Program-made: the position numbers and the translations under genes | Assembly (NCBI RefSeq): GCF_001045555.1 | Contig: NZ_LFBU01000001.1 | Coordinates: 2,108,001-2,172,000, forward strand | Direction: 5' to 3' | From: Marinobacter subterrani | GTDB lineage: Bacteria; Pseudomonadota; Gammaproteobacteria; Pseudomonadales; Oleiphilaceae | DNA: 64,000 bases | Shown: positions 3,387 through 6,840 of the stretch, piece by piece | How positions within the stretch are numbered: the first letter of the stretch is position 1 | Layout: each line of letters opens with the position of its first letter | Notes under the pieces: model-generated | What the model saw: only the letters and a program-made list of their open reading frames with translations | Database searches by the model: none | Told to the model about the DNA's origin: nothing

Positions 3387-4118
3387 TCAACCCGGCTTGC
3401 GGGCCACATACACGGTGTTGAACGATTCCCTGTTCTGGAACGGATTGAAGAAGGATACGACATGGCAGGCAACATCGATGAAGACGTCGTTCAACACGGC
3501 CATGAACTCGTCATCCTCGCCCTCGTTGGACCACATGGCAAACACGCCCCGGGGCTTGAGTTGCCGGGCCATGAGGCGGAGGTTATTGACGGTGTAGAAA
3601 CTGGCGCTGGAGTCGTGCAGCAGGGCCCGGGGTGAGTGGTCGATATCCAGGAGAATGGCATCGAATTGTTTACCGGGGTTCTCCGGATCGAAACCACCGT
3701 TCTCGGGATCGGCAATCGCAAGGTCGAAGAAGCTGCCATGGACGTAGCGGTTCCGTGGATCGGCGTTCAGGTCTTTGCCCAGGGGCACGAGTTCCTGCTG
3801 GTGCCAGCCGATGACGGGCTCCAGGTATTCAACCACCAGCAGCTCGGCAACCCGCTCATGCCTGAGCGCCGCCACGGCGGTGTAACCCAGGCCCAGGCCG
3901 CCGACAACCACACTGAGGTCGTCACCCTCGGTTTCCCTCAGCCCGATATCAGAGAGGGCCACTTCGGCATCCACAAACATGCTGGACATCAGGAATTCCT
4001 CGCCCAGCTTCACTTCATAGATATCCCGGTCACCAATCGCCGGTATCCGCCGCCGGCGAAGAGTGATCTCACCAATCACCGAAGGCTGGCTGTCGATTTG
4101 CTCGAAAAGCAGTCCCAT
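3387..4118 (-). CDS. Spermidine synthase-like SAM-binding domain protein
   Basis: Protein of 243 residues with the Rossmann fold of spermidine synthases: VVGGLGLGYTA at 71-81 is the glycine-rich SAM/dcSAM loop, VVEYLEPV at 95-102 carries the acidic residue for the ribose, and LLDIDHSP at 156-163 is the catalytic-Asp strand. Full polyamine synthases have a longer N-terminal beta domain and a conserved gatekeeper segment that is not obvious here, so the product may be a generic SAM methyltransferase or aminopropyltransferase of unknown substrate. Ribosome site is weak (AGAAGAG). The leader contains a nested palindrome and long hairpin element A. Confidence 0.75.
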   Translation of the reverse strand: MGLLFEQIDSQPSVIGEITLRRRRIPAIGDRDIYEVKLGEEFLMSSMFVDAEVALSDIGLRETEGDDLSVVVGGLGLGYTAVAALRHERVAELLVVEYLEPVIGWHQQELVPLGKDLNADPRNRYVHGSFFDLAIADPENGGFDPENPGKQFDAILLDIDHSPRALLHDSSASFYTVNNLRLMARQLKPRGVFAMWSNEGEDDEFMAVLNDVFIDVACHVVSFFNPFQNRESFNTVYVARKPG

Positions 4119-4202
4119 GTTGCGTGGCTCTTCTGTTCTATTCGAGTTCTCGGGAATCCCAAACTTGGGAGCTTCCCTCTTTTAGCCCGACACTCCGTGC
4201 AG

Positions 4203-4314
4203 GCACGGTTGGGAGGCTGTTTTCAAAACACGCTCCTTGCGGCACATCCCTGTGACGCTTGGGCTCCGCCATCCATGGCTCCGCACAGTTTTGAAAACAG
4301 CCTCCCAACCGTGC
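4203..4314 (-). repeat. Long hairpin element A with conserved loop core
   Basis: Two perfect 27-bp arms (4203-4229 and 4288-4314) enclose a 58-nt loop. Read on the minus strand the loop starts TGTGCGGAGCCATGGATGGC and continues through CAAGCGTCACAGGGATGTGCC. The loop is almost the same as that of element B near 5.0 kb, while the arms differ in sequence yet remain fully complementary. It lies just after the DUF1415 stop codon. A smaller nested palindrome (GGGAATCCCAA/TTGGGAGCTTCCC, 4152-4177) sits between it and the next gene. Confidence 0.85.
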
Positions 4315-4333
4315 TCTCCCCTTACTCCCCTAC

Positions 4334-4891
4334 CTACTCTGAACTTCGCTTGCCAAAACAGGACAGCAGAGTGTTTCGCATCTTTTCCGGACCCAGGTCG
4401 TTCATAAGCGCAATGTTCCGCTCGGGGATCCCGTCCACATCCGGATAGCTGTCAATCGCCGCTTCCAGGCTAGCTTCCCTTAGCAGATGCAACATCGGGA
4501 ACGGTGAACGATTGGTGTAATTCTCCGCCGCATCCGGCTCGGTGCCCGCAAACTGGTAATCTGGATGGAAACTGGCAATCTGGTACACGCCTTCCATATC
4601 CAGGTACGACAACAAACCATCGGCGGCATCGAGAAATTCATTGTAGGGACCAAACTCCCGCAATACACCCGGATGGATCAACAGTGTGGTTTCAATCTCC
4701 GGCTCGTCTTCCAGCCGCTGAAGCTCCGAGTGCAGAGCCTGCAGCAGCTCGTCCTCTGATTCAGCTTCCGACACCACAAACCGCACCCGGTTCCGGACCA
4801 ACTCCCGCTTGGCAAACGGGCACAAATTGTACCCGACAACCACGTCCTCGACCCATTTGCGGGTTGCGCTGATAATCTCTTTCTCACCCAT
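4334..4891 (-). CDS. DUF1415 family protein
   Basis: Cytoplasmic protein of 185 residues with the DUF1415 hallmark WVEDVVVGYNLCPFAKREL at residues 13-31, including Cys24; function of the family is unknown. I place the start at the ATG giving MGEKEIISATRKW because family members begin a few residues before the TRxW motif and an AGGA lies 12 nt upstream. An ATG 24 nt further out (4915) is possible. A longer frame to 4996 is open only because it reads into hairpin element B and should not be used. The gene sits between two inverted copies of the hairpin family and is oriented like its neighbours. Confidence 0.85.
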   Translation of the reverse strand: MGEKEIISATRKWVEDVVVGYNLCPFAKRELVRNRVRFVVSEAESEDELLQALHSELQRLEDEPEIETTLLIHPGVLREFGPYNEFLDAADGLLSYLDMEGVYQIASFHPDYQFAGTEPDAAENYTNRSPFPMLHLLREASLEAAIDSYPDVDGIPERNIALMNDLGPEKMRNTLLSCFGKRSSE

Positions 4892-4938
4892 GCTCTTGAG
4901 GTTTCCTTTATTCATTTGAAGGCCACTCAGAAGTACGA

Positions 4939-5053
4939 GCGGCCGGGCGGGGCTGGCTTCCCAAAACTGTGCGGAGCCATGGATGGCGGAGCTCAAGCGT
5001 CACATGGACGTGCCGAAGGAGCGGGTTTTGGGAAGCCAGCCCCGCCCGGCCGC
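4939..5053 (+). repeat. Long hairpin element B with conserved loop core
   Basis: Two perfect 29-bp arms (4939-4967 and 5025-5053; GCGGCCGGGCGGGGCTGGC at the outer end) enclose a 57-nt loop beginning TGTGCGGAGCCATGGATGGC. The loop matches the reverse complement of element A's loop with only a few substitutions and a small indel, whereas the arms are different but perfectly paired. It lies 17 nt beyond the ABC-F stop codon and upstream of the DUF1415 gene, so it could serve as a terminator for the former. Confidence 0.85.
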
Positions 5054-5070: not shown

Positions 5071-6657
5071 TCAAAGGTACCCCTGACTCCGAAGATAGTC
5101 ATCATAGCTGCCACTGAAATCAGTAATGCCATCAGACTTCAGCTCAATAATCCGGGTCGCAAGCGAAGAAACAAACTCCCGATCATGACTGACAAAAATC
5201 AGGGTCCCCGGATAGTTCTCCAGCGCCAGGTTCAGCGCCTCGATGGACTCCATATCCAGGTGGTTCGTCGGCTCATCCATCAGCATCACATTCGGCTTCT
5301 GCAGAATCAGCTTGCCGAACAGCATACGCCCTTGCTCGCCGCCCGAGATCACCCGCACAGATTTGCCGATATCGTCCCCGGAGAACAGCATCCGCCCGAG
5401 GGTGCCACGCACCAGCTGCTCACCACCCTTGGTCCACTGGGCCATCCAGTCGCTCAGGGTGTCGTCGGAGTCGAAGTCGGCAGTATGGTCCTGGGCAAAA
5501 TAGCCTACTTCAGCGCTGTCGGTCCATTTTACCTCTCCGGAATCCGGCTCATATTTGCCGGCCAGACATTGCAGCAGGGTGGTCTTGCCGATGCCGTTGG
5601 GGCCGATGATGGCGACCCGTTCACCCGCTTCGATCTGCAGGTTCAGTTTCGACAAGACACATTCTTCACCAAAGCCCTTGTAGAGATCTCTCAGGGTGAC
5701 CGCCTGGCGGTGCAGTTTCTTGCCCTGCTCGAAACGGATAAACGGGCTCACCCGGCTCGAGGGCTTGACCTCTTCCAGCTGAATCTTGTCGATCTGGCGG
5801 GCACGGGAGGTGGCCTGCTTGGCTTTCGAGGCGTTGGCGGAGAAACGGCTGACGAACTGCTGCAGCTCGGCAATCTGGGCCTTTTTCTTGGCGTTGTCCG
5901 ACAGCATGCGCTCGCGGGCCTGGGTGGCGGCGGTCATGTATTCGTCGTAGTTGCCTGGGAACAGGCGCAGCTCGCCATAGTCCAGATCCGCCATGTGGGT
6001 GCACACGCTGTTCAGGAAGTGGCGGTCGTGGGAGATGATGATCATGGTGCTGTTGCGGGCCACCAGGATATTTTCCAGCCAGCGGATGGTGTTGATGTCC
6101 AGGTGGTTGGTGGGCTCGTCCAGCAGCAACACATCAGGATCGGAGAACAGGGCCTGGGCCAGGAGTACCCGCAATTTCCAGCCCGGCGCCAGGGCACTCA
6201 TGGGGCCGTTGTGCTGCTCCAGCGGGATGTCGAGGCCCAGCAGGAGTTCGCCGGCGCGGGCTTCGGCCGTGTAGCCGTCCATCTCGGCAAACTGCACTTC
6301 CAGGTCTGCCACGGCCATGCCGTCTTCCTCGCTCATTTCGGCCAGCGAGTAGATGCGGTCGCGCTCTTTCTTGACGTTCCACAGCTCCTCATGGCCCATG
6401 ATCACGGTGTCGATGACCGAGCTGCTCTCATAGGCGAACTGATCCTGGCGCAATTTACCCAGCCGGACGTTAGGCTCCAGCATGACCTGGCCTGCGGACG
6501 GCTCCAGGTCGCCACCCAGGATTTTCATCAGGGTGGATTTGCCGCAGCCGTTGGCCCCGATCAGGCCGTAGCGATTGCCGTTGCCGAATTTGGCGGACAC
6601 GTTTTCAAACAGGGGCTTGGCCCCGAATTGCATGGTGATATTGGCGGTGGAGATCAA
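5071..6657 (-). CDS. ybiT: ABC-F family ATPase, YbiT type
   Basis: Soluble ATPase of 528 residues with two ABC domains and no membrane part; ABC-F proteins act on the ribosome. Domain 1 has Walker [10 protein letters not shown] near residue 35, the unusual YbiT-type signature [14 protein letters not shown] and [11 protein letters not shown]; domain 2 has [23 protein letters not shown] and [14 protein letters not shown] helical linker rich in basic residues joins them. I chose a TTG start giving [19 protein letters not shown] because it has AGG 8 nt upstream and gives the length of E. coli YbiT (530). The upstream extension to 6816 has no family similarity. Confidence 0.9.
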
Positions 6658-6840
6658 GAAACAAACCTGTCGATGTGAGGCCGGCCGGGCGCCGGCGAAA
6701 AGAAAGCCGGCATTGTACAGGTTTGCAGGCGCAATCGTGAGACCGCAGAAACACGGATAAAAAGCGCTTGCCTCCGACGGGCTGTGCGGGCAGCATTCCG
6801 GTTCTGGTATACCCATTCATCCAACCACAGGACATTGATC

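What the first reader, a model, noticed from the sequence alone, without database searches (positions are those of the whole stretch)
4203..5053. Hairpin family with nearly invariant loop and covarying arms, flanking a DUF1415 gene
Elements at 4203-4314 and 4939-5053 have loops of 57-58 nt that are nearly identical (both contain TGTGCGGAGCCATGGATGGC), in opposite orientations. Their 27- and 29-bp arms differ in sequence, yet each pair is perfectly complementary and shares only the inner CAAAAC/GTTTTG end. Conserved loop plus compensating arm changes is the mark of selection on structure, or of a mobile hairpin whose arms are copied together. Both lie directly 3' of minus-strand genes. This is the strongest candidate here for an undescribed element.
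Basis: partly seen in the sequence, partly recalled or inferred. Interest (0 to 1): 0.72.

Follow-up and report, generated by a model that had tools for sequence, protein, structure and literature searches.

The report
Dispersed twin-loop RNA hairpin family
The two hairpins belong to a large scattered family of DNA elements that appear to act as folded RNA with two loops resembling docking sites for the global regulator CsrA; they are distant relatives of a catalogued but barely understood RNA family, here in over a hundred copies in one marine bacterium.

Summary
The window (a Marinobacter genome) holds 2 of at least 110 copies of one dispersed, strand-oriented hairpin element. It is a sub-threshold relative of Rfam RF01731 "TwoAYGGAY" (36.7 and 33.7 bits, cutoff 43), so the kind is not undescribed. 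Each copy has a long outer stem of its own sequence and a conserved core with two small A-N-GGA-N hairpins 23-25 nt apart. All three helices covary, in Marinobacter and in 24 other genera. In the arms G-U pairs outnumber A-C 48 to 1, also in copies antisense to both neighbouring genes (11 to 0), so one single strand is selected, most simply as RNA. None of 113 copies lies in a gene, and orientation is random. Sites are shared between species, with losses and matched changes in both arms. In another gammaproteobacterium (G467) the element is the interior of a recently moved 165-bp unit with terminal inverted repeats and 8-11 bp target duplications. Best reading: a MITE-borne RNA element that binds CsrA/RsmA when transcribed; binding is inferred, as predicted earlier for TwoAYGGAY (PMC4333381).

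The parts
4203..4314 (-). Element A, whole hairpin: 5' arm 4288-4314, core 4230-4287, 3' arm 4203-4229 (read on the minus strand)
   Evidence: RF01731 match 4190-4328 minus, 33.7 bits; R1 match
4263..4284 (-). Element A hairpin 1, GCGGAGCC-AUGGAU-GGCGGAGC
   Evidence: sequence; fold; alignment A1
4239..4258 (-). Element A hairpin 2, GCGUCAC-AGGGAU-GUGCCGC (loop is A-N-GGA-N, not strictly AYGGAY)
   Evidence: sequence; fold; A1
4939..5053 (+). Element B, whole hairpin: 5' arm 4939-4967, core 4968-5024, 3' arm 5025-5053
   Evidence: RF01731 match 4934-5053 plus, 36.7 bits; R1 match
4971..4992 (+). Element B hairpin 1, GCGGAGCC-AUGGAU-GGCGGAGC
   Evidence: sequence; fold; A1
5001..5012 (+). Element B hairpin 2, CAC-AUGGAC-GUG
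   Evidence: sequence; A1
4334..4891 (-). DUF1415 gene between the two elements; a neighbour, not part of the element
   Evidence: PF07209, E 1e-70; 57 of 61 genus genomes have it

Best explanation
Elements A and B are two copies of a dispersed TwoAYGGAY-type element. SHOWN: it is selected as a folded single strand of fixed polarity (long clamp stem plus two A-N-GGA hairpins); it is intergenic and indifferent to gene orientation; many positions are shared between species but often lost; in a relative (G467) it is the interior of a genuinely mobile MITE. INFERRED: when transcription crosses it in the AYGGAY direction the RNA folds into the clamped double hairpin and one CsrA/RsmA dimer bridges the two GGA loops, marking or shielding that transcript and, summed over a hundred copies, competing for CsrA. 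INFERRED: copies spread as passengers of MITEs mobilised in trans, whose terminal repeats later decay. INFERRED: arms stay complementary through selection plus replication template switching between the arms, which gives each copy its own arm sequence.
For: RF01731 matches along the full model. Covariation: 99.1% of outer-helix cells paired with both-side changes at 24 of 25 pairs in 67 copies; 36 of 36 pairs with both-side changes, 96.5% paired, in 41 matches from 29 genomes of 24 other genera. G-U 48 against A-C 1 in 109 copies. Two A-N-GGA-N motifs in 107 of 109 copies, spaced 23-25 nt in 106 of those 107; GGA of both loops 97-100% in other genera while stems vary. CsrA SELEX consensus RUACARGGAUGU, GGA in hairpin loops, bridging of sites 10-63 nt apart with an optimum above 18 nt (PMC7652899, PMC6692469, passages). 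Published CsrA prediction for TwoAYGGAY (PMC4333381, passages). Mobility: TIR and direct repeats in 8 of 8 complete units of G467.
Against: No binding or expression data. CsrA is in 186 of 195 genomes of the order, so co-occurrence says little; 1 of the 9 genomes without a CsrA match still has one element match. Strict SELEX-like RTACARGGAYGT in only 12 of 109 copies; strict AYGGAY in both loops in only 36 of 109. No preference for sense over antisense placement (32 against 32) fits poorly with a role in particular host mRNAs. No terminal repeats or target duplications above chance in Marinobacter, so its own copies are not shown to have moved.
Confidence: 0.55

Rival explanations
1. A single-stranded DNA mobile hairpin: the folded strand is the substrate of a transposase or recombinase, as REP/BIME elements are of RAYT, and the GGA loops are its recognition marks.
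For: No preference relative to genes; strand-specific selection also fits ssDNA, where G-T is better tolerated than A-C; close pairs divergent in 17 of 17 cases; copy number 3 to 144 within 13 genus genomes.
Against: Y1 transposases do not track copy number: none in G001, G005, G008, G009 with 56-94 copies, 22 in G004 with 6 copies. The one clear mobile case moves by TIRs and target duplications outside the hairpin. Loops and spacing are those of CsrA sites.
Confidence: 0.15
2. Each copy, or each divergent pair, is an independently promoted trans-acting CsrA-sponge sRNA gene, like CsrB or RsmZ.
For: Selection on its own strand whatever the neighbouring genes; published sponge hypothesis for the family (PMC4333381, passages); high-copy GGA-rich sRNAs exist in another marine genus, Alteromonas (PMC5864184, passages).
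Against: No sigma70-like enrichment upstream (9 or more of 12 matches in 10% of 109 against 8% shuffled) and a U-run downstream in 3 of 109; some pair spacers are only 40 bp. Other promoter types were not tested.
Confidence: 0.15
3. A REP-like mRNA stabiliser, RNase III site or terminator, in which only the long stem matters.
For: 27-29 bp perfect stems would be good RNase III substrates or 3' exonuclease barriers (recalled); intergenic placement.
Against: Does not explain two conserved GGA loops with covarying stems. Not an intrinsic terminator.
Confidence: 0.1
4. Mutational by-product: palindromes kept perfect by template switching, with no function.
For: Double changes in arms are 120 transversion-type to 54 transition-type, near the 2:1 of random replacement, with only 13 one-sided changes to or from G-U. 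Template switching homogenises inverted-repeat arms elsewhere (PMC8604942, PMC7202029: abstract starts in a search listing only).
Against: G-U to A-C 48:1 and covarying internal hairpins with conserved loops need selection on one strand.
Confidence: 0.05

Closest known systems
TwoAYGGAY RNA (Rfam RF01731, clan CL00106)
   Same: Outer stem plus two hairpins with A-N-GGA-N loops, full-length model match, non-standard purine pairs in hairpin 1 of some subtypes; outer stem poorly conserved in sequence, as noted in PMC4333381
   Different: All 48 own-genome matches fall below the gathering score; strict AYGGAY in both loops in 36 of 109 copies; dispersal in ~110 copies, divergent pairing and carriage by a MITE are not mentioned in the passages I read on the family
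CsrB/CsrC and RsmX/Y/Z sponge RNAs (recalled; passages)
   Same: GGA in hairpin loops, expected to titrate CsrA/RsmA
   Different: Those are few genes with many sites each and own promoters; here many copies with two sites each and no promoter consensus
REP/BIME elements with RAYT (recalled)
   Same: Dispersed intergenic hairpins, oriented, often in opposed pairs
   Different: No tie to Y1 transposases; long arms differ from copy to copy; two CsrA-type loops
MITEs that carry RNA hairpins, such as Correia/NEMIS and ERIC (recalled)
   Same: In G467 a short unit with TIR and target duplication around a structured interior
   Different: The interior is a double GGA hairpin spread over many genera; no TIR found in Marinobacter

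Membership tests
TwoAYGGAY RF01731 | Score at or above the gathering threshold (43 bits) | tested here: not met
   36.7 and 33.7 bits; best of 48 own-genome matches 42.6; none at gathering thresholds in window plus 11 loci
TwoAYGGAY RF01731 | Outer stem enclosing two hairpins | tested here: met
   Full-length alignment to the model; three covarying helices
TwoAYGGAY RF01731 | Two terminal loops of the form AYGGAY | tested here: inconclusive
   Strict AYGGAY: loop 1 in 61, loop 2 in 64, both in 36 of 109 copies; A-N-GGA-N twice in 107 of 109. Element B strict in both, element A in loop 1 only
TwoAYGGAY RF01731 | Tandem G-A pairs in one stem | tested here: inconclusive
   Seen by eye in hairpin 1 of some copies (GAG/CGA or GGA/GGA) and not in others; not counted
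CsrA/RsmA ligand | GGA in hairpin loops at bridging distance | tested here: met
   107 of 109 copies with two motifs; spacing 23-25 nt in 106 of 107; rule from PMC7652899 passages
CsrA/RsmA ligand | Binds CsrA | not testable with these tools
   Needs an experiment
REP/RAYT | Copy number tracks a Y1 transposase | tested here: not met
MITE | TIR and target-site duplication | tested here: inconclusive
   Met in G467, 8 of 8 complete units; not met in the own genome: flank inverted repeats of 13 or more 0 of 109 against 0 shuffled, direct repeats 1 against 1
Intrinsic terminator | U-run after the stem | tested here: not met
   TTTT within 15 nt in 3 of 109

The most novel reading that the evidence does not exclude
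TwoAYGGAY is a transposon-borne regulatory module: MITEs spread a two-site CsrA clamp through gammaproteobacterial genomes, so that each insertion puts its transcript under CsrA and the genome-wide set buffers free CsrA, while the clamp stem is continually re-sequenced by template switching without losing its pairing. Divergent pairs would make an insertion act on transcripts from either side.
Probability: 0.25. Interest if true: 0.82.

Novelty: new variant of a known kind. Interest (0 to 1): 0.6.

Why it matters
TwoAYGGAY was listed in 2010 without a role (PMC2864571, table row) and in the passages I read none has been shown since. Here it turns out to be a high-copy dispersed element in Marinobacter, present in 41 of 96 genera sampled in its order, and mobile inside a MITE in at least one relative. 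That makes the CsrA hypothesis testable in culturable bacteria, suggests how a global RNA regulator could be wired or buffered by mobile DNA, and supplies over a hundred natural long hairpins per genome for studying how paired arms change while staying paired.

Tried and rejected
Rejected: wholly undescribed family; RAYT/IS200 mobilisation; intrinsic terminator; a sigma70 promoter at each copy; a tie to DUF1415; conversion of arms from other copies of the own genome, since no two of 109 share arms (best 83% over 18 nt, mean 52%). MITE ends in Marinobacter: none above shuffled. Rfam at gathering thresholds over window and 11 loci: no match. Literature: searches listed nothing that I recognised as this repeat (titles and abstract starts; 20 of 70, 9 of 9 and 15 of 492 papers listed), one search found no paper, and the name search found 7 papers, 5 listed. 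Not done: tree-based gain/loss counts, a search for the transposase of the G467 unit, use of the 3' tail motif, RsmY/RsmZ family searches (considered, not run), other promoter types.

Weak points: one search scored 150 of 2023 candidates, so 110 is a lower bound; one search scored 20 and 14 candidates per genome, so only presence is used; gene context rests on my own ORF caller, which moves starts that overlap an element; one search uses the 150 listed best matches; site counts are lower bounds, since my arm finder misses some copies that sees; orthologue pairs are not independent and were restricted to divergence <0.16 and arm-pair identity of at least 0.5; of the seven sites I inspected five; TSD lengths were found by shifting boundaries up to 3 nt to maximise the repeat; the 67 copies behind model R1 were found partly by their arms.

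Full report
WHAT IS THERE. The inverted repeats are exact as described: 27-bp arms 4203-4229/4288-4314 and 29-bp arms 4939-4967/5025-5053. On the strand carrying TGTGCGGAGCCATGGATGGC (minus for the first, plus for the second) each folds into one long stem enclosing small hairpins; z is about -10 for either strand. The elements flank a DUF1415 gene (4334-4891, PF07209), with an ABC_tran-type gene (5071-6816) and a 243-aa gene without a Pfam match (3387-4118) beyond.

HOW MANY. A 20-nt core finds 47 sites in the own genome at up to 3 mismatches, against 0 for the reversed pattern. All 47 have complementary arms (45 with 24-34 bp; 2 with a loop longer by about 80 nt). A covariance model R1 from 67 copies gives 110 matches at E<1e-10, a lower bound since 150 of 2023 candidates were scored. 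The names of the nearest DUF1415 orthologues place the host in Marinobacter; the genome itself is unnamed.

IDENTITY. Rfam at gathering thresholds finds nothing in the window and 11 loci. With an E-value threshold both window elements match RF01731 TwoAYGGAY over its full length at 36.7 and 33.7 bits against a cutoff of 43. Genome-wide there are 48 matches at E<1, none over the cutoff, and 1 of 14 control genomes rings, also below cutoff. The name-giving loops are strictly AYGGAY in both hairpins in 36 of 109 copies only, while A-N-GGA-N holds twice in 107 of 109. I therefore file it as a relative of TwoAYGGAY with the same architecture, not as a member by score. TwoAYGGAY was listed in 2010 as probably an RNA and probably not cis-regulatory (PMC2864571, table row), and predicted in 2014 to be a CsrA-binding RNA, with tandem G-A pairs and a poorly conserved outer stem (PMC4333381, passages). 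Passages in PMC11701678 and PMC11661157 add no function. A search for the name found 7 papers, 5 listed.

STRUCTURE IS SELECTED, ON ONE STRAND. In 67 copies the 25-pair outer helix is 99.1% paired, with both-side changes at 24 of 25 positions; sliding the partner by one base drops the whole structure from 91.0% to 43.5-47.5% paired. These copies were found partly by their arms. In 41 matches from 29 genomes of 24 other genera all 36 pairs have both-side changes and 96.5% of cells pair (this alignment is fitted to the model). There the GGA of both loops is 97-100% conserved while all stems vary (40 rows). Non-Watson-Crick pairs among the 24 inner arm pairs of 109 own copies are G-U 48, A-C 1, other 23. 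The 45 copies picked by core alone give 15 to 1 at 24 pairs, and 5 to 1, not significant, at 20 pairs; other genera give 43 to 7. A C-to-T change makes G-U on one strand and A-C on the other, so this excess means selection on the AYGGAY strand. It holds in copies antisense to both neighbours (11 to 0). A single DNA strand could in principle show the same bias.

PLACEMENT. By my own ORF caller 0 of 113 copies lie inside genes. Relative to neighbours: sense to both 32, antisense to both 32, between convergent genes 26, between divergent genes 23. Close neighbours (gap under 210 bp) are divergent in 17 of 17 cases. Among the 150 listed best matches in 29 other genomes, gaps under 250 bp are divergent 10, convergent 1, tandem 5, of which 4 are one array; that array alternates with a repeat resembling a Pseudomonas REP (the resemblance is recalled). 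There is no promoter-like enrichment upstream and hardly any U-run downstream. The 3' flank is T-poor with weak CACC and AGGCT motifs.

EVOLUTION AT SHARED SITES. Copy number in 13 genus genomes runs from 3 to 144. My arm finder sees the two DUF1415-flanking elements in 36 of 52 and 29 of 48 distinct genomes with synteny, lower bounds; model matches in 30 loci show the same orientation as in the window. Some empty sites keep one arm or only the outer arms (L092, L101, L113), which points to loss by deletion. A second region with seven own copies was compared with seven genomes: every site is filled in some and empty, partial or a remnant in others, including spacers of about 10-15 nt, so gain cannot be excluded. 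Among near orthologue pairs, arm pairs were unchanged 637; changed on both sides with pairing kept 174 (120 transversion-type, 54 transition-type); changed to or from G-U on one side 13; mismatched 9; other changes involving G-U 7. Arms can be identical where one copy has the long loop and the other does not (L093/L095, loops 57 and 138), and at copy 5 G045 and G002, 9.6% divergent overall, have cores differing at two positions but arms that differ over most of their length beyond the inner 12 bp, each well paired. Template switching within the hairpin is the simplest source of matched changes; this is inference.

MOBILITY. In G467 (same class, another order) eight complete units of 163-166 bp, seven of them about 97-100% identical and one about 90%, consist of the element between terminal repeats CAGCAATTCCCAATTTG and CAAACTGGGAATTGCTG, and all eight have perfect direct repeats of 8-11 bp; a ninth copy has lost its left end. 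In G308 the element lies in repeat units of about 330-370 bp with other ends; their target duplications were not analysed. In the own genome no such ends are found, and Y1 transposases do not track copy number.

DISTRIBUTION AND CsrA. R1 matches occur in 77 of 195 genomes and 41 of 96 genera of the order and in 48 of 276 genomes and 44 of 216 genera of the class, own genome included. CsrA is present in 186 of 195; the element is in 76 of these and in 1 of the 9 without. This is compatible with a CsrA role but weak. The loops fit the CsrA rules: GGA in hairpin loops, SELEX RUACARGGAUGU, bridging of sites 10-63 nt apart with an optimum above 18 nt (PMC7652899 and PMC6692469, passages); here the spacing is 23-25 nt in 106 of 107 copies, but the near-complete SELEX form occurs in only 12 of 109.

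CONCLUSION. What the passages I read on TwoAYGGAY do not mention is its high-copy dispersal, strand-polar selection, divergent pairing, matched arm replacement and carriage by a MITE. CsrA binding is the best-supported function and remains untested.

Noticed in passing
L025, L029, L095, L097, L106, L107, L108, L117; own genome C1:216070, 277018, 1966253, 3067310, 3157252: A long-loop variant: about 80 nt with extra hairpins (GCTTCATGCGACAGCCGAACGAC) inserted in the hairpin-2 part of the core; 5 own copies by pattern; present or absent at the same site in different species.
   Followed up: partly
L318 (G100:C1:92500-97500): At least six TwoAYGGAY-type elements in tandem every ~227 bp, alternating with a repeat resembling a Pseudomonas REP.
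   Followed up: partly
Upstream flanks of several own copies, e.g. beside C1:2053782 (L246): A second dispersed inverted repeat (GGATTAG..CTAATCCGACCTACG) often lies next to the elements.
   Followed up: no
L190:1797-1949: A copy in G222 whose hairpin-1 loop is replaced by a longer insert holding an inverted copy of the loop motif.
   Followed up: no
G119, G226, G074: Unusually many CsrA matches per genome (11, 19 and 9).
   Followed up: no
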